Assembly: GCA_023374045.1 (NCBI GenBank)
Contig: CM041783.1
Span: 99,916,357 to 99,980,356 of the forward strand
Direction: 5' to 3'
DNA from: Limonium bicolor
Lineage: Eukaryota > Streptophyta > Magnoliopsida > Caryophyllales > Plumbaginaceae
DNA length: 64,000 nucleotides
In this document: in pieces, positions 9,867 through 64,000 of the stretch
Numbering within the stretch: the first letter of the stretch is position 1
Layout of the letters: the number at the start of each line of letters is the position of its first letter
Made by a program: the position numbers and the translations under genes
Notes under the pieces: generated by a model
Told to the model about the DNA's origin: nothing
Seen by the model: the letters and a program-made list of their open reading frames with translations, nothing else
Databases searched by the model: none

Positions 9867-10604
9867 TCAATTTTGTCTAAACGTCAAATTTAACCGTCCA
9901 GGTTTCAAATGGGTAGTATTTACTAGATTGATGGGGCTGTATTCAACTTAATGCTCTTAATCCCATGGTACACTAATCTAGATTCTCCACCAAATATCAA
10001 TACATCTCCTGACTTCAAAATAATCTTTCTCGCCTTGTCCATCCTCTTCTGATCACCGTACAAAAACTCCCGCATCATCTCCAATGGAGAATGATACAAC
10101 TGGTATCCCTCTGATAATTGACTCAGATGTCTCATCTCGGTCCTGGTGTAATCCAAGTTTTCCCCCTCTTTCATAGAAGTTTGCTATGAAAATGTCGCTT
10201 CCATATCCGGTATGGGGTTGGTTTCTAGTTGTTATGCAATCTTGACCCGCTTCTGTCACCAACTTTTGGAAAGTTGGGTATCCTAGGAACTCGTGTTCCA
10301 TCTATTTTTCTAGCTACTTGATACAACCTAGTTTGTGGATCCCAATCTTTACCCATACACATCATATATAATTTATGTTTTGAACCACTACCATATCCTG
10401 GAGTGTAAAACCCTCCAAGGCCTATTCCCAAAGTTCTACATTCATTTACAATAGCTATTTGTTCATCTAGAGTTAAATATTGCTTGAGTAGGATCATGCC
10501 GGGTCGAAGTACTTGGCATTCTCTCTCTGGATATTCCCGACCTTCGCTCATAGGCTCAGGCGATCTCGGTCTCACAGGTATGGGAAAATAAATGTCGAAG
10601 TACC
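9867..10604 (-). pseudogene. E1 AlkB-type 2OG-Fe(II) dioxygenase exon (Gag fusion), frameshifted
   Basis: AlkB enzymes oxidise alkyl groups off nucleic acids using Fe(II) and 2-oxoglutarate. In order: link peptide YFDIYFPIPV, LRPGMILLKQYLTLDEQIAI, GGFYTPGYG, MMCMGKDWDPQTRLY, then NFYERGGKLGLHQDRDE (iron ligands H and D), PVVSFSIGDDA, SGDVLIFGGESRLVYHG (third ligand H), and RLNLTFR (2OG-binding arginine) followed by a stop. Frameshifts near 10275, 10065 and 9925 break the frame, yet every hallmark residue survives. The exon opens right after a 3' splice site (10605) and is in phase 1 with the zinc-knuckle exon. The overall pattern looks most like plant ALKBH1-type proteins (from memory). It is not a host gene: it has no promoter or start of its own and lies between gag and protease. 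Confidence 0.92.
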
Positions 10605-12356: not shown

Positions 12357-12374
12357 TACTCCACTCTGATACCA
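12357..12374 (-). promoter_or_regulatory. E1 primer-binding site (initiator tRNA-Met)
   Basis: On the minus strand TGGTATCAGAGTGGAGTA follows the LTR end TGTTACA by five bases. The first 11 bases TGGTATCAGAG are the standard plant initiator-Met PBS. Confidence 0.9.
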
Positions 12375-12379
12375 CTTTT

Positions 12380-44691: not shown

Positions 44692-44966
44692 ATGCTTTTT
44701 AGAAAGAACGATTTCTTAGTGTAGGGATCTTGTATAGTTGTATTTTGGGTTACTACTTTGGTAATGTTTTAGCATTTTCGCTCATGACACTACTTTTGTA
44801 TCTCTTAATTGATTTAAGTTACTTTTTATGGGTTGGCTTTATATATCACTCATTTGGCTTTATCCGGAGCGACCGGACTTCCAAATGCTTTATAAGCCCC
44901 TTTTATTTACACCAAAGGTCCTTATACTTTCACTCAGTTTTATTTTCAAGAAAATTCCTAGACATT

Positions 44967-45345
44967 ATAGGCACGCTGGCCAGCTGATACATTTCAAGGC
45001 ATGATAGCCTGTAGGCACGCTGGCCAGATGGTACATTTCAAGGCATGATAGCCTGTAGGCACGCTGGCCGGATGGTACATTTCAAGGCATGATAGCCTGT
45101 AGGCATGCTGGCCGGATGGTACATTTCAAGGCATGATAGCCTGTAGGCACGCTGGCCGGATGGTACATTTCAAGGCATGATAGCCTGTAGGCACGCTGGC
45201 CAGATGGTACATTTCAAGGCATGATAGCCTGTAGGCACGCTGGCCGGATGGTACATTTCAAGGCATGATAGCCCGTAGGCACGCTGGCCGGATGGTACAT
45301 TTCAAGGCATGATAGCCTGTAGGCACGCTGGCCGGATGGTGCATT
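44967..45345. repeat. 44-bp tandem array between convergent E4 genes
   Basis: About 8.6 copies of a unit holding TAGGCACGCTGGCCGGATGG and TACATTTCAAGGCATGATAGCCTG, nearly identical (a few A/G, C/T changes such as GGCCAGATGG). It starts ~280 bp after the antisense gene's stop and ends ~60 bp before pol's stop. Tat elements are known for tandem repeats in a hypervariable 3' region that can seed satellites. No spacers, so not a CRISPR. Confidence 0.95.
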
Positions 45346-45401
45346 TCAAAAACTTTGTTTCAATAGAATACCTCATTTTATTGCTCTTGTGAAAAATATT
45401 T

Positions 45402-46319
45402 TTATACATAAAACTTTTTAAGGCATTCAGCATGCCAAGAGTGAGGCAATTCGTATCCTTCACTGTTTTTCAGGCGATATGAGGCTTGCCCTGTTCGCCG
45501 TTGTATTATAAATGGTCCCTCCCACTGGGGCTCTAACTTCTTTGGCTGCTTTACCTCCCGAAGGACCAGTTCGCCCGGAACGAAACTTCTTTCCCTTGTC
45601 CTTTGGTTAAAGTATCTCTCCACATTTGCCTTATCCCTTTCCATCCGAACTTGAGCCATGATCCTAGTTTCTACAAGTAAATCCAGGCTGTCTTTTACCC
45701 CTTCTCCGTTATTTTCCTCGTCATAGGATTCCCATCTAGCTGATGGGACTATAATCTCAGCCGGAACAATTGCTTCCATACCATAGGTTAATCTATATGG
45801 TGTTTCTCCAGTTGGCCCTTTTTCGGTCATTCTGTAGGACCAAAGGACCTGAGGCAGCAATTCCGCCCATCGTCCTTTCTTGCTGTCCAACCTCTTTTTT
45901 ATAGCTTTGACGATTTGCCAATTTGCGTTTTCCACCTGACCGTTTGCTTGCGGATGAGCGACCGATGCGAACCTCAAATCGATCTTCCACTCCTCACAGA
46001 ATGCCCGAAAGCTACCGCAATTGAACTGGGCTCCATTATTTGTCACTATTACCTTTGGGATTTCAAACCTGCAGACCACATATTTCCAAATAAAGTCCTG
46101 CGACTTTCTCGCGGTAATAGATATTGTTGGCATGGCTTCTACCCATTTGGTGAAGTAATCAATGGCCACATAGATGAACCTGTACCTTTCGGGAGATGCT
46201 TCCGGGAAAGGTCCAACAATATCTAACCTCCACATGGCGAATGGGACCGGGGATAATATAGCTTTTTGTGTGGCTGGGGGATTATGTATCTTGTGCCCGT
46301 GTTCTGGCATTTTATGCAT
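45402..46319 (-). pseudogene. pol: E4 integrase core and C-terminal domain, lost Asp
   Basis: An open 305-residue stretch: MWRLDIVGPFPEA (first catalytic Asp), YVAIDYFTKWVEA, PKVIVTNNGAQFNC, then HPQANGQVENANWQIVKAI (Glu present), WAELLPQVLWSYR, TGETPYRLTYGMEA, and the C-terminal FVPGELVLRE and WEGPFIIQRR. The second catalytic position, normally TDNG, reads TNNG: GAT-to-AAT removes the aspartate. There is no chromodomain, as expected for Tat. A one-base indel near 46310 splits it from the zinc finger. It would be inactive. Confidence 0.93.
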
Positions 46320-47260: not shown

Positions 47261-47885
47261 AGTCTGCCAAAGCCTGTGCTTTTATAGCTGTTCGAGGGAG
47301 GAAGTGAATTTCGTACTGGGTGAGTTCGGCAGTCCAACTAACCATTCGTCCAGATGCATTCGGGTTGTTTGCTATCTGCTTTAGAGGCCAATTTGTCCTA
47401 ACAAATATCCGGTGTGACTGAAAATAAGGTCGAAGCTTTCGGGACGCAACGACTAATGTAAACAATATTTTTTCGATGTTGGTGTACCGACTTTCTGCTG
47501 GGGTTAGGATTTTTCCAGTGTAATATACTGGTATCTCTTTTTTCTCTTCCTCCATTATTAGCACGGCCGCCACCGCCCAATCTGTGGCAGACAGATAGAG
47601 GTATAAGTCTTGACCAGGCGCCGGAACACCCAATTTTGGCAATTCTCTGAGCATTTCCTTGATCCTTTCAAAGGCTTCTATACATTCATGACTCCACTTG
47701 AATCTCTTATTTTTTCTTAGAATGTTGAAGAATGGGATTGACTTCTCTTGGAGTTTTGAACAGAATCTTCCTAAGGCCGTGAATCTTCCATTTAATGCTT
47801 GCACATCTTTAATGTTCATTGGTGGCGATAGATCGAGGATTGCCTGGGTTTTTTCGGGATCTACCTCAATCCCTCTTTGCCCGAC
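47261..47885 (-). pseudogene. pol: E4 RT thumb/connection and first RNase H (left of E2)
   Basis: Continues RT after the E2 insertion: RGIEVDPEKTQAIL, LNGRFTALGRFCSKLQEKSI and FNILRKNKRFKWSHEC. Then the Ty3 RNase H: LYLYLSATDWAVAAVLI, YYTGKILTPAESRYTNIEK, VRTNWPLKQIANNP and TAIKAQALADFI. The strongest RNase H acidic residues read T-N-W where D-x-x-L is usual, so this first RNase H may be weakened, which fits a handover to the second. The E2 target site (CCGAC) is at 47881-47885. Confidence 0.85.
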
Positions 47886-50800
47886 TGTAACACCCCAACC
47901 GCTAATCCTATGCTTACCGTCTAATCGTCCTATTAATCCTACGAGTTCGCAGCGGAATTATTACATACTTACTACGGCGGGTGAAACAATGCCGCTAACC
48001 GCCCATACGGCTAGCTAGGCTACTAATACTTTACAGTCACGGTCTGATGAACATAGTGTACCGAGCTACTAATATAATGCATACTGAATACAAATAACCT
48101 ACTTACATTCTTGGATCACCGAGTATTTAAAGTATTACATTACATCCTTTACCGCACTTCCCAAAAGAATGAGTTTCTACCTATTACTCATCTATACCAA
48201 TTCCCTTCCATCAATATCCAAAAAGGTGTACCCCATGGTACACCGGCTATTCAAAAACTACAGCCATGTACTACTCAGTACACCAATCATAACCCAGTGT
48301 TTACATTCCAAAAAGAAGATAAAAGAAATGAAACTAAGTCTTCACATCTTCATCCCTCGCGGGTACCTGCGTGTAGTAAAAATGGTGCCCCAAGGGGCTC
48401 AGCAAACGCTGCGTATAAACTCCGCATATACCGCGTGCTAGCTAGGGCACGCCGACTATTTGACGTCCACTAAACATGCTTTTCATTTATTTCATACATA
48501 CATGCTTTTCATACAACATACATGCTATACAATTCATTACACAATTCAAGGCAACAATATCATAGCATATATCTCACTTACCTTCACAAGGTTAGCCAAA
48601 TTATGCATCCGGGTTAATCGGAATGCTTTTACTCTTTTACTCATTACTTACTTTTTCTTACTTACAATTACTTACTTTCATTTACTTTACTTACTCATTC
48701 TTACTTACTTACTTATACTCAAGTTAAGTCGTCGGGACCTCCGGCCCTAGGGACTACGCCGTCCCACCTCCGGGATTTACTTGACTCACCAATCCGGGAT
48801 GCTACCCACTTAAGGGATTTGGGCCGCGGACCAGTTTAAGAGTCAGGAATTGGAGCCAACCTCTCGTGACTCCGCATCCTCACGTGGCCGAAACTATATC
48901 GGACTTCTACTCATTCCAATTTAATTACCAATTTAAGTTAGGATGGTTAGCTTGTTAGGAATAAGTTAGAAGTCCAAACACATCACAATCGGTCACAATA
49001 TAATACATCTTACATACACACATTCATATTCATCCAAACATTTCATGAATTATACAAACTAAAATTTAAGAAAATATTCACAACATACAACACTACATAT
49101 TCACAAGTATGCATATTAACTCCGATTCGTGCATTTATCTTATTTGGTGATCAATTAGCACACAACACACAAATCAGAGTAACCAAGATAGCATACGGGG
49201 CATGAGGAATCCATACCGTTCACCGTCGTACGTGTTCCCAAACGTCCTTCCGGTGTCACAAATCAAATCCTATGATATGCATACAATTGAGTGATTAATC
49301 TACCATTATTAATCTTAACTCAACTACTTTTATGTTTACTAATCCATATTCACTAAGCCTTTACATTCCTTACACTTATATTTCATTTTACTTACTTTCC
49401 ATTACTTGTCCATAATTTACATACACATATATATACATATGTATAGGTGGGTATACATATATATATGTATGTATACTAGTTATAAGCTTACTGTTTTTTT
49501 TTTGTAAGTATAGGCCGTCCGACCCACCGTCCGACCCAAGCCCTGGGTCGGACCATTCCAGTAAGATTCGTTCCCAGAAAATTACCCTGTCCGACCCAGC
49601 ACTATTCCGTCCGACCCATACTCTCTGGGTCGGACCATTCCAGAAGGTTTTGGTCCTGTCGTCCAAGCTATGTCCGACCCACGTCCGACCCAACGTCTGG
49701 GTCGGACGAAGTCAGAAACTTCGACGGCGGAAAAATTTAGCCTGTCCGACCCACGTCCGATCCACGACTCTGGGTCGAACCATTCCAGAAAGTTTACATC
49801 TCGTTGTTTAAGCCCTGTCCGACCCACGTCCGATCCAGACTCTGGGTCGGACGGTTCCAGAACCTTGTTACAGATTTTGTTTTTCCTTCCCAATTTCACC
49901 CATTGTTTCCCCAATCTTCCTACATGCATCCTAACATGTTTTAGTACAATTTAAACACCCTAAATCATGCTAATTCATTTCCTAATTCATTACACAACTC
50001 TATACTAACTTATATACACAATTCTCTTAATTTCAACTCAACACTTACACAGTTTTCTTCCTTAATGCATTTTGCTACAGATTTTGATACTAATATTCCC
50101 CTTCTACATCTCCCTCTTCTAGTGTCATTTCTAACACTCCTAATGCATCTAGAATCCATTAACTATCTCTCTCAACTTCCCCTCTGTTTATTTCGATCAA
50201 AATCTGTTACAACCTATATCATTCACCTAGTTTTCAATTCACTAAGTGTTCTATTCCTAGGTAAATTTTGACATAACCTCCCCTATATTTCTACACTCTC
50301 ACCACATTTTCTAGTTCACAATTCGACACTCTTTTCACCTGTTTCAACAATTAAAAATTATACAAGCTCCCATATACAAATACCAATATTTAAACCACAC
50401 TAAATTTCCTGCACATCACTTCCCATCCCCAATTTGTTTTCAATAAGTTTTACACATCTTTTAAAGCTTCAAAATACTTATATTCTCCTATACATTACAC
50501 TACTACTACATTACCATTCCATTACTCATTTCAAACTTCCAAAAACTGTTACATACATATATATACCAAGTTATACAAAAGAGTATTCTTACCTTGTTTT
50601 TCTTCTAGATTTTCTTTGTTCTTCTTGTTTCTTCCTCTTCTCTCTCTCTACCGGTTTTAGTAACTCAATCCACTAACACTACAACCATTCACACACACAT
50701 ACTTCAATACTAAAGCTAACTCTACACATTATTTAGCTCCTAATGCAAGTTCTAGGGTTTGGAGATTTCATTACCTTGTAAGGGTTTATGAAATACTTGG

Positions 50801-51735
50801 AGCAGCTCAAGAATGGTCTTTCCACCCCTTTCAAAATGCCAAAACCGGCTGGGCACAAGAGGAGCAAGCAAGGGTTTAGTTCACATTTTCGTTTTGCCCT
50901 TTAGGCTAGAAAAAGATGAAGTTTTTGAGAATGTTTTTACCTTAAAAGAACAAGGAGAAGGAGGGCCTTCTAATGGTGGTGTTGAAGCTCCAAATGGGAC
51001 ACACCCATAAAAACGAAAGTTGTTGTTTTTGGATTTTGGAAAGATGGAAATGTAGCCCTTGATGAGAGGATTACAATGGTGGTATTTTTATAATTTTTGG
51101 AAGAGTTTGGAGAGAGTTACAAAGGAGAGAAGTAGGAGTTTGTGTGGGTTTCTCTATTTCTCCATGGCCATCGGCTGGAGGTAGAAGAAGAGGAAAAGAG
51201 AGAGTGAGGGAGGAGGGTGCATGCGTGAGAGAAGAGAATGAGAGGAGGAGAGAGAATAAAGTGAGGTAGTATAGGGTGAGTGGAGTTGTTTAATTATTTT
51301 TGTCTTTTGTAAATAGAGGGGAGTGTGAGGGGAGGGTCCAATCGGACACACACACACATATATAACACTTTTACTTTTTATTTTCAAAGTGGACACATAA
51401 CTCTTGGTTATTTATGTTTCTACCCCACAACTTCCTATTTTTGACAGTTTTTACTAATCTCTCGTTTTATTGATTTTATTGGCTCTAAAGCTTCGCTAAT
51501 ATTTATTAATGATTATTTAGTTGACCAAAATTGTTACGAGTCTATTTGACCCGCTTAAAGTCACGTTTTCCCGGTTACCTCGAAAAACGCGCTTTAAGGT
51601 TCGTTGGTGTTTTTAATCCATTTTAAGGATCCGTTTTCTTCGGGATTTGTTCCCTAATATTTATTTATACATAATTAAGCCTCTAAATTACTTATTAGCC
51701 TAATTAATCACTATTTTTAATTACGGGGTATTTCA
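47886..51735 (-). repeat. E2 3' LTR, 3850 bp
   Basis: TGTAACACCCC to GGGGTATTTCA. Holds a GTCCGACCCA hairpin array (49511-49860), a TA-rich palindromic stretch (49425-49485), TTAC-rich runs (48640-48720) and GA-rich sequence near 51180-51260. No gene. The left TSD CCGAC precedes it. Confidence 0.97.
49511..49860. repeat. GTCCGACCCA hairpin array (left LTR copy)
   Basis: Five units of about 70 bp, each with GTCCGACCCA (or close variant) twice and TGGGTCGGAC once, for example CCGTCCGACCCAAGCCCTGGG. The 10-bp arms are perfect in most units. A second copy is at 60012-60360 in the other LTR. Confidence 0.9.
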
Positions 51736-51753
51736 ATCTACCCCCCTTAAGAA
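51736..51753 (-). promoter_or_regulatory. E2 polypurine tract
   Basis: Minus strand TTCTTAAGGGGGGTAGAT next to TGAAATACCCC. Confidence 0.85.
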
Positions 51754-52139
51754 CCTTTGCGCCTCAAAGTTGCTCAAGGTTAGTGGTTTTATAATTCTAC
51801 TCATTATGCATACCAATTGTCATAATGTGTCTTACTACACCTATGGGGTGTTTACTTTCATTCCACATTGCAAGCATACCCATTTCAGCATCATCATACA
51901 ATTCACATACACAATACATCATTTCCATTCATACCATACCACAATACACAATCAATACACCATTACCATTCACAATGCACATTAACCATTAACCATTACA
52001 CACATACATTGCACATACACATCATTCATTACACATTACACACATACATACACGTCCATACTAATTCACTTGCACTACATGGTCCATACAAATCTATTAC
52101 AATACCTACCCACTAAGCAATGCAAAAGCAAAAGGGTCT
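51754..52139. other. E2 3' untranslated region
   Basis: AT- and CA-rich (CATTACACACATACAT-type) spacer between the chromodomain end and the polypurine tract. No gene seen. Confidence 0.6.
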
Positions 52140-52760
52140 ACTACCCCCCCCTTAAAAGGGGTACGACCCTACCCCTATTTCTAATACTAGACTCTCTAGT
52201 CTAAGAATAACCGCGGGGTATTTAGCCTTCATGGCATCTTCCAGCTCCCATGTCGCTTCTTCTATCATTCCCATGGTTTGACCATAGGACCTTCACCATT
52301 CGTATAGACTTATGGCGAGTGTCTTTGGTCTTCCTATCAAGGATTCTCACGGGTTTTCCACATATCTCATGGTTGTTCGATGGATAATCTCTCGGGCTCT
52401 AGCACATGAGAAGGATCAGCAATGTACTTCTTAAGTTGTGACACATGAAATACATCATGGACACGTCCCAAGTCCTCAGGTAGTGCCAACCTGTAGGCTA
52501 CGGATCCAACTCTTTCGTGATAGTGTACGGCCCTACAACTTTGGGCTTAGCTTGCCCTTCTGACCAAATCTGAAGACACCCTTCATAGGTGAAACTCGAA
52601 GAACACTTGGTCGCCCACGGCGAACTCAAGGTCGCGTCGTCTCACATCCGCATAGGATTTCTATCTATCTTGGGCTGCCTTCATGTTAGCTCGGATTTGT
52701 TGCACTTCGGCTTGTACTTGCTCAAGATACTCCAGTCCTATTATGACCGCTTCACTTGAC
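52140..52760 (-). pseudogene. pol: E2 integrase C-terminus and chromodomain
   Basis: The minus strand gives PVRILDRKTKDTRHKSIRMV and VKVLWSNH for the chromodomain (~52260-52370), preceded by GPY/F-type residues and the phrase KGVFRFGQKGKLSPK (~52550-52590 in shifted frames). Equivalent to 3421-3972 in E1. Several one-base indels break the frame. Confidence 0.82.
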
Positions 52761-53499
52761 TCATCCCAACACAAGGTTGTACGGCAAGGTCTACCCTATA
52801 GAGCTTGGAAAGGCGACATCTTAATCGAGGCGTGATAACTATTATTATACGAGAACTCGATAAGATGAAGCTTATCTAACAACCAACTCCCCTGAAAGTC
52901 CAAGGCACATGCCTGAAGCATGTCCTCCAGTGTCTGGATGGTCCTTTCTGTCTGACCGTCGGTCTGAGATGGAAGGTGGTACTCAACTTCAGTTCTGTAC
53001 CCAACGCTTCCCTTGTAGCTCTCCAGTATCTCGAAAGAAACCTGGTGTCGCGGTCAGATACTATAGATCTCTAGGGTCTGGACTGTCTCCTGGTGTCTGA
53101 TATCTCCTTATCAAAAAGCTCAGCTAGCTTTACTACCTTGCAGGTGTCCTTCAATCGGTATGAATCTTGGCAACCTTGGTAAGGCGATCTACTACAACCC
53201 AGATCATGTTGATCCCCCCCTAGCAGGTGGGAGTCCTACAACAAAATCCATGGAGATATCATGAAATTTCCACTCCGGAACTGGCATAGATTTTACCATT
53301 CCCCTGGTCTACTAGGGTGTTCAAATTTTACCTTCTGGCATGTTAAGCATCTCAATACAAATTCCGTCACATCTGACTTCATTCCGGACCACCAGAAGTA
53401 CCTCTTCATGTCTCCTGTACATCTTGGAGGCTCCCAGAATGGACTGATAATGTAACAGTGTGACTCTCGCAGGATGCAATCCCTTAGCTCAGCATTGCT
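52761..53499 (-). pseudogene. pol: E2 integrase zinc finger and core, frameshifted
   Basis: Zinc end RCLTCQKVKFEH (~53335), MDFV (~53250, first Asp), SDRDTRFLSRYW (~53060, second Asp) and QTDGQTERTIQTLEDM (~52930, Glu). All three catalytic residues are encoded but in different frames. Confidence 0.83.
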
Positions 53500-54000
53500 T
53501 CAGGGAACGCATAGCCTGCCATTCAACCGAATCAAACCATCTTCATGTAGCTTAAAATCATACTTTTTCTTCTCAAATGTACCATTCTCGATCTTGTGTC
53601 TGATTTCGGTTAGGTAAGGGTCGCTCAGCTGAGCGTCTCGCACCTCGTCAACCAAGCTAGAAGAAGCGAGTAGCGAATGGAGCGAGTGTGCTCGACGGCT
53701 CAGGGCGTCGGCTACAATGTTTGCCTTCCCTTCCTTATACTGCAGGTTGATGTCGTAGTTTGAGAGAAACTCCATCCACCTTCTCTGCCTCAAGTTGAGT
53801 TCTTTCTGAGTGAATACATACTGTAAGCTCTTATGGTCGGAGTAGATGGTGATGCTTACCCCATAGAGATAGTGTCGCCATATCTTCAAGGCGAAGACAA
53901 TGGCTCCTAACTCTAAGTCGTGAGTCGGGTAATTCTCCTCATGCTTTTTCAGCTGGCGGGAGGCATAAGCAACAACCTTGCCATGCTGCATGAGTACCAT
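53500..54000 (-). pseudogene. pol: E2 RNase H and Pol linker
   Basis: The best-preserved Pol stretch: [80 protein letters not shown] and [11 protein letters not shown], with the RNase H acidic residues in place. It runs on into the linker before integrase. Open over 166 residues; the frame is lost on the RT side near 54000. Confidence 0.9.
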
Positions 54001-54900
54001 CCCATTCCTTTGCCTGATGCATCACAGTACACCCTCAAATCCCTCTGTGCCCTCTGGAAGAGTAAGGACGGGCGCTGAGGTCAATGAGTCTTTCAGTTTC
54101 TGAAATGATAGCTCGCACTCGTGTGTCCATACAAACGGTGCATATTTCTTCATTAGTGTCGTCATGGGCTTAGTGACTTTCGAGAAGTCCCTTACAAATC
54201 TCCGGTAGTAACCGGCTAGACCAAGAAAGCCCTAATGTCGGTAACAGTCTTGGGTCTAGGCCATGATCGTACAGCTTCTACCTTAGAAGGGTCAACTGAG
54301 ATACCTGCGCTCGAGATGACATGTCCAAGGAATGATACCTGATCAAGCCAAACTCGCATTTGGAATTTCGCATAAAGCTGGTTCTCGCGCGGTTAGCGCA
54401 GTGTCTCCAGCACTTTCCTCAAGTGGGTTTCATATTCCTCTGGTATATTAGATTATACAGGAGTCATGTCGATGAAGACCACAACCGAAGTTCAACTGCT
54501 CACTGAATAAACGGTTCATGAGGTCCATGAATTTAGCGGTGCATTTGACAAACTGAATGGCATCACTGTGAATTCGTAGTGGCCATATCTGGTGCGGAAT
54601 GCCGTTTTCTCAATGTCTTGCTCTTTGATTGCAATCTGATGATACCCTGAATGGAGGTCGATCTTGGAGAAGACTGAGGCTCCTTTCAACTGGTCGAATA
54701 GGTCGTCGATACGCGGTAGTGGGTATTTATTTTTGACTGTGACCCATTCAGCTCTTGCGGTAGTCAATGCATAGACGGAGACTACCGTCCTTCTTCTTCT
54801 TCACGAAGAGGACCGGTGCTCCCCAGGGTGATACGCTCGGGCGTATAAACCCTTTGTCTAGAGGTCTCTTAACTGTTCATTCAATTCGGTCATCTCTGCT
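54001..54900 (-). pseudogene. pol: E2 reverse transcriptase, damaged
   Basis: [57 protein letters not shown] and SLSNAP mark the fingers and palm (54516-54767). The catalytic box at ~54470 reads FID followed by a frame break where FIDDILVYS is expected. [16 protein letters not shown] residues precede at ~54780. The E1 homologue is at 5291-6103. Confidence 0.85.
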
Positions 54901-55632
54901 GGTGCCATGCGGTACGGTGCCCTGGCAATGGGACCGGTACCCTGGCAATAGATCAATTTCGAATTCCATTGCTCTCGGTGGTGGCATGCCGGGTAGCTCC
55001 TTAGGGAATACTTTGGGAATTCGGATCTATGGGTACAATCGTCACTGAACTCTGGATCTCTCTCCAGATCTTGCACATAACACAGATACACTTCTTGGCC
55101 CTTTCTGAGCTCCCCGGTACATAGCCATGGCATATATTGCACTTCGATGGCAAGATACAGGTCTGGCGTCTGATCTCTCGATCTCTCGTATAGGCATCCG
55201 AGACCGCTCTGGAGCGGCAAACGATCTCGTGCGCAGAGGATTCTACCCTCTCCTTGGCGTCTCCAACCAATTACATCCGATAGATTCCAATCATTCCGAT
55301 AATTACGTCGAATCCCAATCCATTGAATTCGATGAAGGAAATGGGAAACGATTCGCCTTTAATTTGGATTGTGGCTGATTGATAGTATTTGGTGCACTTT
55401 ACTCCTCTCGCTCCTTCGATGGAGAGTAACCATGAAGTTCGGTAGCTCATCCGCATCTAGCTTCAACCTCTTCACAAGGATGGTGATACGAAAGTGTGAG
55501 AGGCGCCGGAGTTGAATAACACATTGGCATCAATGCCATTTACTGGGAAGGTTCCCGTTAGAATGGTGCCGCTTCTGCCGGCTTGTGCTTCGGTGAGGAT
55601 GCTCAGGTTACCTTCGGTACCGAGTCGACAAC
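54901..55632 (-). pseudogene. pol: E2 protease and linker; candidate pol exon start
   Basis: VNGIDANVLFNSGASHTFVS (~55500-55540) is the aspartic protease active site, but the catalytic triad DSG reads NSG: the Asp is replaced (GAT-to-AAT). The frame upstream is open (LGTEGNLSILTEAQAGRSGT). At 55633/55632 the minus strand reads CCAATAG|GTTGTCGACTC, a 3' splice site in phase 1, the phase of the zinc-knuckle donor. The linker toward RT (54860-55270) is frameshifted. Confidence 0.82.
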
Positions 55633-55772
55633 CTATTGGATTCACAATTGGATAAGTATTGATGGTGGACACAAGTGGAATTAAATCAACACTGCTCTTT
55701 ATTGATAAACCAACCATCATACATACCGTGTCTCTAATACACGTTACTAATAGGTTACATGATACTAGGAAT

Positions 55773-56510
55773 TTAATACTTTCTAAAGGTAAGGTTCAGG
55801 CGTCCTGGTTTAATGTGTGTGGCATTGATTATTGCCGGCGGTGCCGTATTCAACTTGATCTTGTTGATCCCGTGATACAGCATCCTAGAGTTTCCACCCA
55901 TGATTAGGACATCTCCTGATCTCAATAACAGTTTCTGTGCGAGTCGAGCTCTCTTCTGCTCGCTATACAGGAATACGGCGTCATCACCAATGGACCAAGA
56001 CACTATGGGCACTCCTTGTTCAAGAGATTCCGCTGTCTCGTCCTTGTCTTGGTGTAACCCAAGTCGTCCTTCTTTCTCGTAGAAGTTGACGATACAGAGA
56101 TCCGCTTCAAGTGCGGGGATCGGTTCAGGTTCACATTGTTGTGCAAGTTCTACTGCTTGTGTGATGAGTGTCTGAAATTCTGGAGGTATTGTCGGTGGCG
56201 TTGCTCCATCTTGTGTTCGTGTCTCCTGGTATGTCTTGGTATAAGGATTCCAATCCTTTCCCAAGCACATCATTTTCAGCTTCATCTTCGCTCCACCGGG
56301 AATTCGGGTGTGTAAAATCCACCTTGACCCGTTCCTAGCTCATTGCATCGTCGAATAATTGAGATTTGTGCTTCGGGTGTCAGGTATCCCTTTAATAAGA
56401 TCATACTGGTCGGATGACCTGACACTGTTTGTTGGTGTAGTCGTGGTTGGTGATGTCGATCTCTTCTTGATTCAAGTTTACCGGTATCGGGTAACAGATA
56501 CTAAAGCTTC
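55773..56510 (-). CDS. E2 AlkB-type 2OG-Fe(II) dioxygenase exon (Gag fusion)
   Basis: Open from 56285 to the stop at 55773-55775: KMMCLGKDWNPYTKTY, ADLCIVNFYEKEGRLGLHQD (Fe ligands H and D), PIVSWSIGDDAVFLY, LLLRSGDVLIMGGNSRMLYH (third Fe ligand H), then KPGRLNLTFRKY and stop. RLNLTFR carries the AlkB R-x-N-x-T-x-R motif that holds 2-oxoglutarate. Upstream the exon reads SFSICYPIPV, MILLKGYLTPEAQISIIRR and GTGQGGFYTPEF, with two 1-base gaps (about 56405 and 56297). It is ~245 residues in all, the size of a full AlkB catalytic domain. It follows a 3' splice site in phase with the zinc-knuckle exon. Likely substrate is RNA or ssDNA in or near the particle (inference). The stop excludes simple read-through into protease, whose frame is +1. 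Confidence 0.93.
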
Positions 56511-56663
56511 CTATGGTTACAAATTTCATCTACGGTGAGTATTAGTTTCAACTACTTCATTTCATGCTTAATATACACTTCATTTATTTACTCATGCATT
56601 CACTCATACAGTTACTCAATTACTAGGCATGCTATTTCAAGGATTAAAGGTTCAGATGATTAC
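56511..56663 (-). other. E2 gag intron 3 (zinc knuckle to AlkB)
   Basis: 153 bp; donor GGCCCAG|GTAATCATC, acceptor AACCATAG|GAAGCTTT, phase 1. Same position and phase as E1 10605-10739; both are followed by an F-x-I-x-x-PIPV peptide. Confidence 0.82.
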
Positions 56664-57008
56664 CTGGGCCGGATTTCGAACCGGACCCATCACGGTCAAT
56701 AACATGGAGAACAGGCTGCCTCTGAGGTGCGCCCCTCTGAGGGCCCCGGGATCCCTGTCCCTGAGGTGCCTGTTGGGCCGGTGCATCGCCAGATGCCACC
56801 TCCTTGCCCTCTCTCTGCTTGTAGCTTTGGAAGGTTCCCTTCGGCTTTCCATTCTCTGGGCACTTGTTAGCTGTGTGTCCCAGCTTATGGCAATTATAGC
56901 ATTTGATTTCTCTCCCGTAACAGTCCTTACCAGGATGGTCCTGGTTGCACTTTCTGCACACATAGGTGCGGCCATCGGAGAAGGTTTTGGCGACACCGGA
57001 GCTAGAAC
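56664..57008 (-). CDS. gag: E2 Gag zinc-knuckle exon
   Basis: Opens GSSSGVAKTFSDGRTYV, then two CCHC knuckles CRKCNQDHPGKDC and CYNCHKLGHTANKC, then a Gln/Gly/Pro-rich tail to the donor. Intact frame. Binds genomic RNA in the particle. The knuckle spacing is identical to E1. Confidence 0.9.
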
Positions 57009-57091
57009 CTGAGGTTAGAGGGTTAGCACATGTGTGCGTGGATATACTAGATATGATACTTATACGAATACAAATTGGATTAGGAATTTAC
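57009..57091 (-). other. E2 gag intron 2
   Basis: 83 bp; donor CCTAAGG|GTAAATTCC, acceptor TCTAACCTCAG|GTTCTAGC, phase 1. Homologous to E1 intron 2. Confidence 0.85.
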
Positions 57092-57372
57092 CCTTAGGTG
57101 GGTATGATCTCAGTGGCTTGGCTGCCACCGGTGCAAAATAACCAAGCTGAAGAAGCTCAGCTGGTTTGCCCTGCTCAGCATGGGCACCGCTCTCACCCTG
57201 AGATTTCTTTTGGGATTGCTGAAAGAAATTCCTCTTCTTTCTTTTTCCAGCTCTTCCCCTGGTTCTGCTCCTCAGTGCTGGTGTTTTTGTTGTTAGCTTT
57301 GCGCTTCAGCGCGGTCTCTTCATCCCTTAATTGGCAAGTGATCTCAACGCGAGAAGCCGCGTGATAACACTC
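57092..57372 (-). CDS. gag: E2 Gag middle exon
   Basis: Reads ECYHAASRVEITCQLRDEET, then a Lys/Gln-rich stretch (KKRNFFQQSQKKSQGES) and PLRSYPPK at the donor. One small frameshift near 57240. In E1 ECYDAAS is on the first exon, so the exon limits differ. Confidence 0.78.
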
Positions 57373-57485
57373 CTGAAATCTCAGGTATTAGCCGGGATTC
57401 TCATTTAAGGAGGAATAAAGAAAGATTCAAAGAATTCAAGGAATTTAAGGAATTGAAATGATTCTAAGGGTTAGCCGTTATTTAC
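57373..57485 (-). other. E2 gag intron 1, not shared with E1
   Basis: 113 bp; donor CCCTTCAG|GTAAATAACGG, acceptor CTGAGATTTCAG|GAGTG. It splits the peptide FTSLQ-ECYHAAS, continuous in E1 as FTTIQECYDAAS. Confidence 0.83.
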
Positions 57486-58148
57486 CTGAAGGGAGGTAAA
57501 TCTGGTGTAGCCCATACCGTACCGATGGCGATGGCTCAGACCGCCATAGAAGCGATCGACCAACACCTGGCCGGTGTATCCTAGATCAGGGAGGAGACGA
57601 AGAATGGAGGTAAAGGTGCGGTAGTACTCGTCGACAGTCATCTTCTCTGTCATTTTCAAGGCGTCTAGCTCTAGCCTTTTCTTTGTTTTCACGTGCTCAG
57701 GTAGTATTTTGAACGGAGGAGAGATGCAAAGAATCCAGTCGAATGTGGGGTCACTGGCGTGCTCGTGCTTAACCAGCTTCCACCAATCCATGGCTGCATC
57801 CTTCAGATAGTAGGCTGCAACTCTGACTCAAACTCCAGCAGGAGCTTCGAGTGTTTCGAAAGCCGTCTCCATCTCGGAGATGTAGGCCTCGAGCTTAGCC
57901 GGATCACTCTCGCCCCTAAAGCAGGGAGGGCGGAGCTCCGCTACAGATTTTACCCAGTTTGCTTCTCTGGGTGGCGGGGGAGGGATTGGTCCCGCTTGAG
58001 TTTGTTGGTTTTGCTGAGATTGTTGTACAGCTTGGATTACTTGTGGTAGCATCTGCGCTACCGTGGCGGCGACGATCTCAGCTATCGTCTGCGCGCCGGG
58101 TCCGTCATTGCCCCCTCCTCTGGGGCGACCTGGACCTCTGCCTGACAT
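57486..58148 (-). pseudogene. gag: E2 Gag N-terminal exon
   Basis: Starts MSGRGPGRPRGGGNDGP. Proline-rich PIPPPPPREANWVKSVAEL, capsid-like PAKLEAYISEMETAFETLEA, VRVAAYYLKDAAMDWWKLV, LDALKMTEKMTVDEYYRTFT and LVDRFYGGLSHRHRYG follow. A single TGA at 57828-57830 interrupts it, where CGA (Arg) would restore the frame, as in a C-to-T change at a CpG. Otherwise open from 58148 to the donor at 57485. Confidence 0.88.
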
Positions 58149-58351
58149 CTGAATATTTAACAGTTACATTAGGCTCGCAAGATATGACTCAAAGGTCTTG
58201 GAATTTAAGCAAGGTATCGTTCCTAAGAACGTCAAGGGTATCCGTTGTTAACAACGGTAGTTCCTAGTTAGGTTTCTAAGTATCCGTCTTAAGACGGTTG
58301 AAATCCTACCTCGGTAATCCCCTATGCTCGGTACTATGGACATCAGAGCGT

Positions 58352-58369
58352 AACTACGCTCTGATACCA
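58352..58369 (-). promoter_or_regulatory. E2 primer-binding site (initiator tRNA-Met)
   Basis: Minus strand TGGTATCAGAGCGTAGTT, five bases after the LTR end TGTTACA. TGGTATCAGAGC is the exact 12-base plant initiator-Met PBS. Confidence 0.93.
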
Positions 58370-60011
58370 CTTTTTGTAACACCCCAACCGCTAATCCTAT
58401 GCTTACCGTCTAATCGTCCTATTAATCCTACGAGTTCGCAGCGGAATTATTACATACTTACTACGGCGGTGAACAATGCCGTTAACCGCCCATACGGCTA
58501 GCTAGGCTACTAATACTTTACAGTCACGGTCTGATGAACATAGTGTACCGCGCTACTAATATAATGCATACTGAATACAAATAACCTACTTACATTCTTG
58601 GATCACCGAGTATTTAAAGTATTACATTACATCCTTTACCGCACCGCACTTCCCAAAAGAATGAGTCTCTACCTATTACTCATCTATACCAATTCCCTTC
58701 CATCAATATCCAAAAAGGTGTACCCCATGGTACACCGGCTATTCAAAAACTACAGCAGCCATGTACTACTCAGTAAACCAATCATAACCCAGTGTTTACA
58801 TTCCAAAAAGAAGATAAAAGAAATGAAACTAAGTCTTCACATCTTCATCCCTCGCGGGTACCTGCGTGTAGTAAAAATGGTGCCCCAAGGGGCTCAGCAA
58901 ACGCTGCGTATAAACTCCGCATATACCGCGTGCTAGCTAGGGCACGCCGACTATTTGACGTCCACTAAACATGCTTTTCATTTATTTCATACATACATGC
59001 TTTTCATACAACATACATGCTATACAATTCATTACACAATTCAAGGCAACAATATCATAGCATATATCTCACTTACCTTCACAAGGTTAGCCAAATTATG
59101 CATCCGGGTTAATCGGAATGCTTTTACTCTTTTACTCATTACTTACTTTTTCTTACTTACAATTACTTACTTTCATTTACTTTACTTACTCATTCTTACT
59201 TACTTACTTATACTCAAGTTAAGTCGTCGGGACCTCCGGCCCTGGGGACTACGCCGTCCCACCTCCGGGATTTACTCGACTCACCAATCCGGGATGCTAC
59301 CCACTTAAGGGATTTGGGCCGCGGACCAGTTTAAGAGTCAGGAATTGGAGCCAACCTCTCGTGACTCCGCATCCTCACGCGTGGCCGAAACTATATCGGA
59401 CTTCTACTCATTCCAATTTAATTACCAATTTAAGTTAGGATGGTTAGCTTGTTAGGAATAAGTTAGAAGTCCAAACACATCACAATCGGTCACAATATAA
59501 TACATCTTACATACACACATTCATATTCATCCAAACATTTCATGAATTATACAAACTAAAATTTAAGAAAATATTCACAACATACAACACTACATATTCA
59601 CAAGTATGCATATTAACTCCGATTCGTGCATTTATCTTATTTGGTGATCAATTAGCACACACACACAAATCAGAGTAACCAAGATAGCATATGGGGCATG
59701 AGGAATCCATACCGTTCACCGTCGTACGTGTTCCCAAACGTCCTTCCGGTGTCACAAATCAAATCCTATGATATGCATACAATTGAGTGATTAATCTACC
59801 ATTATTAATCTTAACTCAACTACTTTTATGTTTACTAATCCATATTCACTAAGCCTTTACATTCCTTACACTTATATTTCATTTTACTTACTTTCCATTA
59901 CTTGTCCATAATTTACATACACATATATATACATATGTATAGGTGGGTATACATATATATATATATGTATGTATACTAGTTATAAGCTTACTGTTTTTTT
60001 TTTTTGTAAGT

Positions 60012-60360
60012 ATAGGGCCGTCCGACCCACCGTCCGACCCAAGCCCTGGGTCGGACCATTCCAGTAAGATTCGTGCCCAGAAAATTACCCTGTCCGACCC
60101 AGCACTATTCCGTCCGACCCATACTCTCTGGGTCGGACCATTCCAGAAGGTTTTGGTCCTGTCGTCCAAGCTATGTCCGACCCACGTCCGACCCAACGTC
60201 TGGGTCGGACGAAGTAAACTTCGACGACGGAAAAATTTAGCCTGTCCGACCCACGTCCGATCCACGGCTCTGGGTCGGACCATTCCAGAAAGTTTACATC
60301 TCGTTGTTTAAGCCCTGTCCGACCCACGTCCGATCCAGACTCTGGGTCGGACGGTTCCAG
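60012..60360. repeat. GTCCGACCCA hairpin array (right LTR copy)
   Basis: Second copy of the array at 49511-49860, same five-unit layout with a few small changes. Confidence 0.9.
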
Positions 60361-61825
60361 AACCTTGTTACAGATTTTGTTTTTCTTCCCAATTTCACCC
60401 ATTGTTTCCCCAATCTTCCTACATGCATCCTAACATTTTTAGTACAATTTAAACACCCTAAATCATGCTAATTCATTTCCTAATTCATTACACAAACTCT
60501 ATACTAACTTATATACACAATTCTCTTAATTTCAAACTCACACTTACACAGTTTTCTTCCTTAATGCATTTTGCTACAGATTTTGATACTAATATTCCCC
60601 TTCTACATCTCCCTCTTCTAGTGTCATTTCTAACACTCCTAATGCATCTAGAATCCATTAACTATCTCTCTCAACTTCCCCTCTGTTTATTTCGATCAAA
60701 ATCTGTTACAACCTATATCATTCACCTAGTTTTCAATTCACTAAGTGTTCTATTCCTAGGTAAATTTTGACATAACCTCCCCTATATTTCTACACTCTCA
60801 CCACATTTTCTAGTTCACAATTCGACACTCTTTTCACACCTGTTTCAACAATTAAAAATTATACAAGCTCCCATATACAAATACCAATATTTAAACCACA
60901 CTAAATTTCCTGCACATCACTTCCCATTCCCAATTTGTTTTTCAATAAGTTTTACACATCTTTTAAAGCTTCAAAATACTTATATTCTTCTATACATTAC
61001 ACTACTACTACATTACCATTCCATTACTCATTTCAAACTTCCAAAAACTGTTACATACATATATATAAAAGTTATACAAAAGAGTATTTTTACCTTGTTT
61101 TTCTTCTAGATTTTCTTTGTTCTTCTTGTTTCTTCTTCTTCTCTCTCTCTCTCTACCTCTCTCTCTCTCTACCGGTTTTAGTAACTCAATCACTAACACT
61201 ACAACCATTCACACACACATACTTCAATACTAAAGCTAACTCTACACATTATTTAGCTCCTAATGCAAGTTCTAGGGTTTGGAGATTTCATTACCTTGTA
61301 AGGGTTTATGAAATACTTGGAGCAGCTCAAGAATGGTCTTTCCACCCCTTTCAAAATGCCAAAACCGGCTGGGCACAAGAGGAGCAAGCAAGGGTTTAGT
61401 TCACATTTTCGTTTTGCCCTTTAGGCTAGAAAAAGATGAAGTTTTTGAGAATGTTTTTACCTTAAAAGAACAAGGAGAAGAAGGGCCTTCTAATGGTGGT
61501 GTTGAAGCTCCAAATGGGACACACCCATAAAAACGAAAGTTGTTGTTTTTGGATTTTGGAAAGATGGAAATGTAGCCCTTGATTGAGGATTACAATGGTG
61601 GTATTTTTATAATTTTTGGAAGAGTTTGGAGAGAGTTACAAAGGAGAGAAGTAGGAGTTTGTGTGGGTTTCTCTATTTCTCCATGGCCATCGGCTGGAGG
61701 TAGAAGAAGAGGAAAAGAGAGAGTGAGGGAGGAGGGTGCATGCGTGAGAGAAGAGAATGAGAGGAGGAGAGAGATAAAGTGAGGTAGTATAGGGTGAGTG
61801 GAGTTGTTTAATTATTTTTGTCTTT

Positions 61826-61838
61826 TTAAATAGAGGGG
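61826..61838 (-). promoter_or_regulatory. Candidate E2 TATA box
   Basis: Minus strand TCTATTTAAAAAG, ~35-40 bp before CCACTCACCCTATACTACC, a plausible start region. The other LTR has TCTATTTACAAAAG, a weaker match. Confidence 0.35.
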
Positions 61839-62264
61839 AGTGTGAGGGGAGGGTCCAATCGGACACACACACACACATATAACACTTTTACTTTTTATTT
61901 TCAAAGTGGACACATAACTCTTGCTGGTTATTTATGTTTCTACTACCCACAACAACTTCCTATTTTTGACAGTTTTTACTAATCTCTCGTTTTTTTGATT
62001 TTATTGGCTCTAAAGCTTCGCTAATATTTATTAATGATTATTTAGTTGACCAAAATTGTTACGAGTCTATTTGACCCGCTTAAAGCACGTTTCCCGGTTA
62101 CCATCGAAAAACGCGCTTTAAGGTTCGTTGGTGTTTTTAATCCATTTTAAGGATCCGTTTTCTTCGGGATTTGTTCCCTAATATTTATTTATACATAATT
62201 AAGCCTCTAAATTACTTATTAGCCTAATTAATCACTATTTTTAATTACGGGGTATTTCACCGAC

Positions 62265-62834
62265 GATAAAGCCTAAGAACTTCCCCTTTGTAACTCCAAA
62301 TACACATTTTTCCCGATTTAGCTTGATTGGAATCTGTCCTGAGTGTCAAAAGTTTCCTTCAGGTCTTCCATGTGCTGTGTCCAAGAATTGCTTCTCACCA
62401 CAATATCATCACGTATGCCTCCACACGTTTCGGGCTAATTGTTGTTTGAATACTTTGTCTATCATTCTTTGGAATGTTGCTCCCGCATTTTTTAATCCAA
62501 AAGGCATTACTTTGTAGCAAAAGGTTCCGGCCGAGGTAATAAAGGATGTTTTTTCTGAATCTTCTTCATTCATCCTTATTTGATTGTATCCCGAGAATGC
62601 GTCCAAGAAACTTAAGACAGAACTTTGAGCCGTTGAGACGACCAATCTATCTATTGATGGTAATGGGTAGAAGTCTTTAGGACATGCTTTATTTAGGTCC
62701 GTGAAATCTACACACATTCTCCATTTGCCATTTGACTTTTTAACCATTACAACGTTTGGCCAGCCACTTGGGATAAGACACTTCTCTGATGAACCCGGCC
62801 TTGAGCAGTTTTTGCACCTCAGCGCGTGCCGCAA
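62265..62834 (-). pseudogene. pol: E4 reverse transcriptase, right of E2
   Basis: NVVMVKKSNGKWRMCVDFTD, LNKACPKDFYPLPSIDRLV, LSFLDAFSGYNQIRMNEED, TSFITSAGTFCYKVMPFGLK and NAGATFQRMIDKVFKQQL are the RT fingers and palm. The catalytic box follows at ~62425: the DNA reads TACGTGATGATATTG where YVDD needs one more G, so a single-base deletion destroys YVDD and shifts the frame. E2's insertion follows downstream in the conserved GF(I/L)V region. Confidence 0.92.
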
Positions 62835-63306
62835 GGTCCCTTTCTTCTCCTATTATTCTTCTTCTTTACCGGATGGCTGGGTGCTTCGGATCTACACGTA
62901 GGTCATGCCGGATAACGCTTAGGTCTATTCCGGGCATGTCGTCCGTACTCCAGGCGAAAGTTGTCCTTCTTTTTTCCAGGAATCTCATCAGGTGAGTTTG
63001 CTCTCCATAGCCAAATGCATTCCCTATTTTAAAAAAATTAGAAGGGTCAGTTTTTAAGTGTACCTCTCTTGGTGAGTCTTTAGAAGTTCCACAGCCTTCT
63101 GTATTTTGATCCGGCTCCGGTGGGAGAGGTAGTTTTCCCTTGAATTCCTTGTCTGACCCCACCATTTTAACCATTCCTTCTTCCGGCATACCCTCCATGA
63201 TGCGGACTTCACAGATTCGAGCCATCTGTTGACTTCCTTTTATGGTTACCACCTTTCCATTCCAGCCTTGGTTAAATACTTCATTTTTAGGTGGTGAGAG
63301 CTGCAT
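62835..63306 (-). pseudogene. pol: E4 protease-RT linker
   Basis: Reads CEVRIMEGMPEEGMVKMVGS, HLKTDPSNFFKIGNAFGYGE and then TTFAWSTDDMPGIDLSVIRH and LRVDPKHPAIR, the phrase preceding RT in Tat-lineage Pol. Open over 146 residues, with a break before RT near 62860. Confidence 0.85.
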
Positions 63307-63760
63307 ATTGCTTTGAAGGCATTAATCCCCATCGGTCGACCGAGATACATATTGTATCCAGAAAGTCCCGGCACGATGAAAGCTGTAAGTCTTTCAGTTC
63401 TTCGCTCGTCTCCTAGTCCCAATGTTATGGTGAAGTCTATGCTTCCTGAGGATCTGGTGGAAACGCCCCCAACAAAGCCTCCGAGGACCGCTGAGTATGG
63501 CTTGACTTTACTCTCTGGGATTTCACAGCTTTTTAACTAACTGCCTCGGCCGATATGACATTCGCTCCAGCTCCGCTATCTATCAAGATTCCTTCCATCA
63601 TCATGTCATTTACTTGCGCCCGAATGACAAGTGGATCGTTGTGGGGATATACCACCCCTTCTTCGTCTTCATCTGTAAAAAAATCTGGGGAAGACTTTCT
63701 CGTTTGGCGATTTTTCTTTCCGGGAGCTCTTGATGTACTGCATGAATATGTCTTTTCCTT
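63307..63760 (-). pseudogene. pol: E4 aspartic protease
   Basis: MMMEGILIDSGAGANVISAE (~63550-63605) is the protease active site DSGA, preceded by DPLVIRAQVNDM. A serine/lysine-rich spacer lies upstream. Frame interruptions are present; the end toward RT is not resolved in one frame. Confidence 0.8.
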
Positions 63761-64000
63761 TCGTTTGGGGTCAACGGTCCTACTTCTGAAAAGAGACCTG
63801 AGAATTTTCTTAAAGAAAAAGTTTATTAGACTTCTATTCTTTCGGGAAGTGATTTACCGGAAGGTTTGTTTTTACAATGTATGCCTTTCCTGAGAAAAAA
63901 GAAATCAATTACACCCATTTTCGCCTGCTACCTAACCGGTATGACCGGACCTATCTAATGTTTAAAGAAATAAAAAAACGTCTTCACCTTCTTACAGACC
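63761..64000. other. E4 Gag-Pol spacer at window end
   Basis: Continues E4 toward gag. Lys/Arg-rich short frames only; no zinc knuckle reached before the window stops. Confidence 0.5.

What the first reader, a model, noticed from the sequence alone, without database searches (positions are those of the whole stretch)
55773..56510. E2 carries a captured AlkB dioxygenase between Gag zinc knuckles and protease
All hallmarks are readable: NFY-x8-LHQD with two Fe ligands, YHG with the third, and RLNLTFR for 2-oxoglutarate. An RNA/DNA demethylase domain is not part of any standard Ty3 element. It could erase m6A, m1A or similar marks from the element's own RNA, or repair its cDNA. The ~740-bp domain has no introns of its own, consistent with capture from an mRNA (inference). 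The pattern resembles plant ALKBH1-type proteins.
Basis: partly seen in the sequence, partly recalled or inferred. Interest (0 to 1): 0.95.

Follow-up and report, generated by a model that had tools for sequence, protein, structure and literature searches.

The report
Retrotransposon splices AlkB onto its Gag
A plant jumping gene present in thousands of copies carries an exon copied from a host AlkB (ALKBH1) gene and splices it in frame onto its own coat-protein message, so the predicted enzyme would likely ride in the element's particle and strip methyl marks from its own RNA or DNA.

Summary
The AlkB exon is real (PF13532, E=4e-40) at exactly 55773-56510, minus strand, in a young Ty3 LTR element (E2, 47886-62259). 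It is family-wide: 19,211 exact hits to two patterns for its iron-ligand motif in the 2.92 Gb genome; of 20 copies read, 20 have Gag capsid and zinc knuckle before it and 19 have protease after it; 69 of 81 protease-anchored places carry it. It is ALKBH1-type, lacks two introns that the host gene has inside the domain (so it was copied from spliced mRNA), and evolves at dN/dS about 0.12. New: one donor after the zinc knuckle fits two acceptors, AlkB and protease, and the AlkB exon ends in its own stop. Copies of spliced RNA written into the genome show both joins (11 of 13 and 6 of 7 places checked). So inclusion should give Gag-AlkB and skipping Gag-Pol. An orchid Ty3 element with AlkB is published (ALKBH5-type, separate ORF, Ogre/Tat); this is another capture with another layout. 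Protein, packaging and substrate are untested; own RNA or single-stranded cDNA is likely. The window copy itself is frame-broken.

The parts
58375..62259 (-). 5' LTR of E2 (TG...CA); TSD GTCGG at 62260-62264 and 47881-47885
   Evidence: self-BLAST, edges and TSD read directly
58358..58369 (-). primer binding site TGGTATCAGAGC (initiator-Met tRNA type, recalled)
57486..58148 (-). Gag exon 1 (start MSGRG, capsid); one in-frame stop in this copy
   Evidence: PF03732 E=1.2e-9, frames, donor context
57373..57485 (-). Gag intron 1 (GT...AG)
   Evidence: donor GT 19 of 21 with 2 gaps, acceptor AG 21 of 21; 94 places match the joined exons, flanks of these not checked
57092..57372 (-). Gag exon 2 (frame-broken in this copy)
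   Evidence: frames, open in kin copies
57009..57091 (-). Gag intron 2
   Evidence: donor GT 20 of 21 (1 gap); acceptor AG in only 10 of 21 in one column, 10 gaps and 1 '-G', the site being shifted in part of the copies; absent from L091
56664..57008 (-). Gag exon 3 with the CCHC zinc knuckle (56845-56970); ends in a phase-1 donor
   Evidence: PF00098 E=2.5e-4
56511..56663 (-). intron 3, donor of Gag exon 3 to AlkB acceptor, 153 nt
   Evidence: GT 21 of 21, AG 21 of 21; 11 of 13 checked junction copies
55773..56510 (-). AlkB (ALKBH1-type) exon with its own stop codon; frame-broken near its start in this copy
55633..55772 (-). stretch after the AlkB stop up to the protease acceptor; with intron 3 and the AlkB exon (56663-55633) it is removed when AlkB is skipped
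   Evidence: acceptor AG 20 of 21, 1 gap; 6 of 7 checked junction copies
52210..55632 (-). protease and pol (RT, RNase H, integrase, chromodomain-like end), broken in this copy; low end approximate
   Evidence: chromodomain seen in kin piece L089
51741..51748 (-). polypurine tract AAGGGGGG
47886..51735 (-). 3' LTR of E2
9873..10503 (-). decayed AlkB of the second element E1, with zinc knuckle 10966-11088 and capsid 11514-11984 upstream and protease remnant 6380-6730 downstream

Best explanation
E2 belongs to a Ty3 LTR-retrotransposon family that carries an ALKBH1-type AlkB exon between the Gag zinc knuckle and protease and whose RNA is spliced from one Gag donor either in frame to that exon or past it in frame to protease-Pol, so that the predicted enzyme is likely made as a Gag-AlkB fusion that would be built into the particle and would strip methyl groups from the element's own packaged RNA or single-stranded cDNA. 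Shown: domain identity, ALKBH1 type, capture from spliced mRNA, family-wide retention, purifying selection, and both splice joins (from spliced copies written back into the genome). Inferred from sequence: reading on unspliced stops soon after the donor and would give Gag alone, inclusion Gag-AlkB, skipping Gag-Pol. Inferred only: translation, packaging, catalysis and substrate.
For: PF13532 and OsALKBH1 as best relatives by sequence and by predicted fold. 16,627 + 2,584 exact motif hits, reversed controls 0. Of 20 copies read, 20 have capsid and zinc knuckle before AlkB and 19 protease after it; 69 of 81 protease-anchored places have the motif 420-473 nt upstream. Host introns missing from the exon. 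dN/dS 0.122 and 0.120 in the two least saturated pairs, 0.148 within subfamily A. Donor GT 21 of 21, AlkB acceptor AG 21 of 21, protease acceptor AG 20 of 21. Genomic copies of spliced RNA: 11 of 13 checked Gag-AlkB junctions and 6 of 7 checked Gag-protease junctions are true. L091, of E2's subfamily, has Gag exon 2, zinc knuckle and the first part of AlkB in one open frame of 282 codons. [quoted passage not shown]
Against: No RNA or protein data. The window copy is frame-broken, and only 7 of 20 copies read have an AlkB frame open over the whole query. Three of the 20 junction-like places checked are not junctions, and some true ones are near-duplicates (L069/L070, L068/L074, L075/L076). AlkB joins were seen in subfamilies A and C only, not F. 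Retrocopies show that splicing happens, not how often or that the fusion is translated. No Gag-AlkB protein was found in the protein database. Substrate is by analogy.
Confidence: 0.6

Rival explanations
1. The Gag-AlkB fusion is made, but its job is to repair alkylation damage (m1A, m3C) or to remove 6mA from cDNA or chromatin, not to erase marks on the RNA genome.
For: Closest folds are OsALKBH1 and E. coli AlkB; rice ALKBH1 acts on 6mA in single-stranded or unpaired DNA and R-loops (PMC10469495, passages); nearest named proteins are called DNA N(6)-methyladenine demethylase ALKBH1C/D-like.
Against: Nothing here separates the substrates; the orchid case acts on m6A in RNA in vitro (PMC9289625), but with an ALKBH5-type domain.
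Confidence: 0.3
2. The AlkB exon serves mainly as a stop-carrying exon that sets the ratio of Gag to Gag-Pol; the enzyme is secondary.
For: It ends in its own stop and competes with the protease exon for one donor; splicing that yields Gag-only RNA is known from BARE1 (PMC3735527, passages).
Against: dN/dS about 0.12 and the catalytic set in 42 of 43 open copies: a mere stop needs neither.
Confidence: 0.06
3. AlkB works as a free protein, released from the fusion by protease or made by internal initiation, and acts on host RNA or chromatin.
For: The orchid AlkB is a separate ORF (PMC9289625); methionine codons lie near the start of the conserved domain.
Against: Both genomic junctions keep the Gag frame; the methionine before the domain is not invariant (GLILL in L001).
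Confidence: 0.15
4. A one-off insertion or a host gene fragment in a dead element.
For: The window copy is frame-broken.
Against: 19,211 motif hits, conserved order, several diverged subfamilies, one clade with 100/100 support apart from the host gene, purifying selection.
Confidence: 0.01

Closest known systems
Gypsy_Pa_2799 of Phalaenopsis orchids with paALKBH5-like ORF2 (PMC9289625; parts 1-5 of 7 read)
   Same: A plant Ty3/Gypsy LTR element with a captured PF13532 AlkB domain, cofactor residues kept, multi-copy
   Different: There ALKBH5-like, a separate ORF2 apart from a single Gag-Pol ORF1, Ogre/Tat lineage, tRNA-Arg PBS, about 25 kb, m6A activity shown; here ALKBH1-like, between zinc knuckle and protease, alternatively spliced onto Gag, initiator-Met-type PBS, chromodomain in a kin copy, activity untested
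Rice OsALKBH1 and plant ALKBH1C/D (PDB 5xeg/5xoi)
   Same: Best sequence and fold match; same C-terminus and FDIC region
   Different: Element exon lacks the host introns, has a shortened linker, about 50% identity, and forms its own clade
BARE1, EVADE and Ogre: plant LTR elements that splice (PMC3735527, PMC12786077; passages)
   Same: Splicing of the element's RNA near the Gag-Pol border changes which products are made
   Different: Those splice to Gag only or join ORFs; here one donor chooses between a captured enzyme exon and protease-Pol, and Gag has two further introns
AlkB domains of plant RNA viruses (Alphaflexiviridae, Betaflexiviridae, Closteroviridae; as stated in PMC9289625)
   Same: A parasite genome carries an AlkB dioxygenase
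   Different: RNA viruses there, a reverse-transcribing element with Gag here; not compared by sequence in my calls

Membership tests
AlkB / ALKBH1-type 2OG-Fe(II) dioxygenase | PF13532 over the curated cut-off | tested here: met
   138.4 bits for E2's open core, 152.7 for L047, cut-off 31.2
AlkB / ALKBH1-type 2OG-Fe(II) dioxygenase | Fe(II) triad HxD...H and RxxxxxR | tested here: met
   catalytic set in 42 of 43 open copies
AlkB / ALKBH1-type 2OG-Fe(II) dioxygenase | closer to ALKBH1 than to ALKBH5 | tested here: met
   5xoi E=8.5e-29, target TM 0.91; human ALKBH1 6imc E=1.9e-11, target TM 0.47 (longer chain); human ALKBH5 7v4g E=6.4e-8, target TM 0.59
AlkB / ALKBH1-type 2OG-Fe(II) dioxygenase | demethylase activity | not testable with these tools
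   no biochemistry here
Ty3 LTR retrotransposon (chromovirus) | two LTRs, TSD, PBS, PPT, Gag, PR, RT in Ty3 order | tested here: met
Ty3 LTR retrotransposon (chromovirus) | C-terminal chromodomain | tested here: inconclusive
   L089: PF00385 25.3 bits, cut-off 25.1; the other two pieces fetched, L087 and L088, gave no such frame; not tested in E2 itself, and no RT tree was made
Orchid AlkB Gypsy family (Gypsy_Pa_2799) | ALKBH5-like domain | tested here: not met
Orchid AlkB Gypsy family (Gypsy_Pa_2799) | AlkB in a separate ORF apart from one Gag-Pol ORF | tested here: not met
   lies between zinc knuckle and protease and is spliced to Gag
Orchid AlkB Gypsy family (Gypsy_Pa_2799) | PBS antisense to tRNA-Arg, Ogre/Tat lineage | tested here: not met
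   PBS TGGTATCAGAGC (tRNA type recalled); lineage by RT tree not tested
Alternatively spliced LTR retrotransposon | spliced RNA species exist | tested here: met
   indirectly, from genomic copies with exact junctions; no RNA data

The most novel reading that the evidence does not exclude
A retrotransposon that packages its own eraser: alternative splicing turns a captured host ALKBH1 into a Gag-AlkB fusion that is assembled into the particle and cleans methyl marks or lesions off the RNA genome or nascent cDNA before integration, a counter-defence that helped the family reach about twenty thousand copies.
Probability: 0.45. Interest if true: 0.95.

Novelty: new variant of a known kind. Interest (0 to 1): 0.85.

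Why it matters
It is an AlkB capture by a plant LTR retrotransposon of another AlkB class (ALKBH1) than the published orchid case and with another layout, so AlkB-type erasure looks like a repeated gain for retroelements. The Gag fusion predicts where the enzyme should act, inside the particle, which makes it directly testable whether methyl marks on retroelement RNA or cDNA restrain transposition. The two-acceptor exon would also be a compact way to make Gag, Gag-enzyme and Gag-Pol from one RNA.

Tried and rejected
One-off insertion or host gene: rejected by copy number, order and tree. ALKBH5 type as in orchids: rejected. Viral relatives: a scan of viral contigs with the AlkB exon confirmed none (4 stretches matched a pattern). 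Gag-AlkB proteins in the protein database: none at E<=1e-8 with the natural fused frame of L091 (315 candidates); that search reaches only proteins of 0.55-1.75 times the query's length. Four database proteins (P0002-P0005) fall in the element clade, but their sources are unnamed, so the host range is unknown (120 of 543 and 120 of 1150 hits were listed). NbALKBH1L (PMC12736721, passages) is called an ALKBH9B homologue there, so it is no guide to substrate. dN/dS is saturated at silent sites for most deep pairs; I rest on the two least saturated pairs and on the within-A mean, and all rows were chosen for open frames. Chromodomain: found in one of three downstream pieces fetched. Intron 2's acceptor did not line up in one alignment column in about half of the copies. 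The plant species was not identified. An intended second set of 20 copies was not fetched, so the sample of 20 covers only the first 5.3 Mb of contig C1.

Full report
WHAT IS THERE. The finding is right about the sequence. On the minus strand, 55773-56339 is an open frame with PF13532 at E=4.3e-40 and rice ALKBH1 as best solved relative, E=2e-53. It lies in an LTR retrotransposon, E2: LTRs 58375-62259 and 47886-51735, TSD GTCGG, PBS TGGTATCAGAGC, polypurine tract. The LTRs differ by 34 substitutions over 3,836 compared sites, K2P 0.0089, about 0.34 My at 1.3e-8 substitutions per site per year (rate recalled). Capsid, zinc knuckle, AlkB, protease and RT follow one another on the same strand. 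The window copy is broken: a stop in Gag exon 1 and frame changes in Gag, AlkB and pol. Other copies with an unbroken AlkB frame exist.

NOT A ONE-OFF. The window lies in a 2.92 Gb plant genome (a plant by its content, name not given). A degenerate pattern for the Fe-ligand motif GLHQDKDE/D has 16,627 exact hits, a form with R or S for K 2,584 more, reversed-pattern controls 0. These are motif hits, not each read. I read 20 of the listed places, all in C1:0.3-5.3 Mb and chosen by the AlkB motif: capsid and zinc knuckle lie upstream in 20 of 20, protease downstream in 19 of 20 (not L048), RT in 18 of 20. In the deeper subfamily D the same order is seen (for example L031, L039, L041, L045, L046). 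Starting instead from a protease-exon anchor that does not look at AlkB (13,304 hits), 69 of 81 listed places below C1:11.43 Mb have the exact AlkB motif 420-473 nt upstream; the other 12 were not fetched and may hold altered motifs. Of 65 element loci and window copies, 43 have a stop-free AlkB frame of at least 200 aa, but the loci were picked by score; among the 20 motif-picked copies 7 are open over the whole query.

WHERE IT CAME FROM. The host's own ALKBH1 gene (L035, L038; L037 a damaged-looking copy) has introns inside the domain, after ISVPEQ and after GLHQ; the element's exon has neither (introns inferred from the alignment, no RNA). So it was copied from spliced mRNA. The exon keeps the host's FDIC region, a shortened linker and the host's C-terminus. 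In a tree of 56 proteins, 18 element sequences and four database proteins of unnamed source form one group (100/100) apart from this plant's own gene and 33 database homologues, 31 of them with plant names (midpoint root, so the age of the capture is open; the database four lie among the element rows). Of the pairs compared, the two least saturated give dN/dS 0.122 (A1-A2, dS 0.62) and 0.120 (F1-F2, dS 0.39); protease in F1-F2 gives 0.113 and RT 0.061; 12 open copies of subfamily A average 0.148. The AlphaFold model of the L047 exon (best model pLDDT 85.5, pTM 0.85; the five models range from 51.9 to 85.5) matches OsALKBH1 best (5xoi, E=8.5e-29, target TM 0.91), then E. coli AlkB; human ALKBH1 (6imc, E=1.9e-11) and ALKBH5 (7v4g, E=6.4e-8) follow.

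HOW IT IS EXPRESSED. The exon ends in its own stop, so it is not a simple insert in a Gag-Pol frame. Across the 20 copies and E2 the zinc-knuckle donor GT is kept in 21 of 21, the AlkB acceptor AG in 21 of 21 and the protease acceptor AG in 20 of 21 with one gap. The donor is phase 1 and both acceptors fit that phase. In the 14 of 21 copies in which a script could place donor and acceptor, the intron before AlkB is 127-153 nt, 67% A+T against 54% in the exon, and reading on unspliced meets a stop before AlkB in all 14, 3-27 codons on. The strongest test is in the genome itself: exact exon-exon junctions, left where spliced RNA was reverse transcribed. Patterns for the Gag-AlkB join hit 13 places, the Gag-protease join 35, the first Gag intron 94, reversed controls 0. 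Flanks of all 13 and of 7 of the 35 were fetched: 11 of 13 and 6 of 7 are true junctions. They read SSRPG|TFNICYPIP (subfamily A) or KSGPG|SFSICYPIP (C) into AlkB, and SSRPG|CALGTGG (A), KSGPG|CGLGTEG (C) or SSRPG|YGLGTEG (F) into protease. L067, L072 and L084 still carry intron sequence and are not junctions; L069/L070, L068/L074 and L075/L076 look like duplicates. None of the 68 sequences in hand before matched either junction pattern. L091, of E2's own subfamily, lacks introns 2 and 3 and has one open frame of 282 codons from Gag exon 2 through the zinc knuckle into AlkB; it keeps intron 1, and AlkB then meets a stop. L090 (A) lacks only intron 3.

MECHANISM. Best reading: RNA unspliced at the last Gag intron gives Gag alone; joining to AlkB gives Gag-AlkB; skipping AlkB gives Gag-Pol. 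AlkB would then be packaged with the RNA and cDNA by its Gag part. Shown: the exon, its conservation and both joins. Inferred: protein, packaging, activity, substrate. [quoted passage not shown] m6A restrains the ONSEN element and ALKBH9B relieves it, as reported in PMC9289625; I did not read the original. Own RNA or single-stranded cDNA is therefore the likely target, and repair is the chief rival.

WHAT IS KNOWN. PMC9289625 (parts 1-5 of 7 read) reports an ALKBH5-like ORF2 in Phalaenopsis Ogre/Tat elements, active on m6A in vitro, and no such domain in LTR elements of the other genomes among 121 angiosperm assemblies. Ours differs in AlkB class, PBS, position and expression, so membership in that family is not met. 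Lineage: one kin piece has a chromodomain just over Pfam's cut-off (L089), two others fetched did not show it; no RT tree was made, and Tekay is only my recalled guess. Splicing as such is known from BARE1 (PMC3735527, outline and passages) and from EVADE and Ogre (PMC12786077, passages). My searches for AlkB or ALKBH1 in plant retrotransposons and for spliced Ty3 Gag (listings only) brought up the orchid paper and a review that cites it (PMC12786077), and no other title that names such an element; most subscription journals and bioRxiv are not in that library.

VERDICT. A true, very abundant, selected AlkB exon in a plant Ty3 element, with a splicing layout that I found described nowhere in those searches: new variant of a known kind.

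Noticed in passing
window 1-17688, AlkB remnant 9873-10503 (-): The second Ty3 element E1 also carries the AlkB exon, decayed, nearest to subfamily D; 3.1 kb lie between it and the protease remnant (6380-6730), with no match among the loci in hand.
   Followed up: partly
window 47886-51735 versus 58375-62259, and 53001-58200: E2's LTRs differ by more gap openings (29) than mismatches (20) in BLAST, and its inside has 48 indels against L047 (43 not multiples of three); some frame breaks of the window copy may be sequence errors rather than decay.
   Followed up: partly
G000 C1:1430340-1461739 and C1:7387134-7418992: AlkB motifs repeat about every 10.5 kb in the same orientation, as in tandem arrays of elements that share LTRs.
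   Followed up: no
window 57009-57091 and 57373-57485: Gag itself has two more intron-like gaps; 94 genomic places match the joined exons of the first.
   Followed up: partly
window 60016-60350 and 49513-49850: The LTRs hold repeated GTCCGACCCA / TGGGTCGGAC motifs in both orientations.
   Followed up: no
L068 and L074: Two near-identical Gag-AlkB junction copies on different contigs (C1, C3) run into unrelated sequence soon after the start of AlkB, as if from one rearranged source.
   Followed up: no
L048 (C1:326663-332685): No protease or RT follows AlkB in the fetched stretch of this copy; its downstream sequence resembles the LTR reading frames of E2.
   Followed up: no
window 44924-45407 and 23979-24395: Tandem repeats with 44-nt and 46-nt units.
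   Followed up: no
window 62409-63853: RT frames (PF00078, E=2e-19) and an aspartic-protease-like frame of another retroelement begin just beyond E2's 5' LTR, so E2 may be inserted next to or into it.
   Followed up: no
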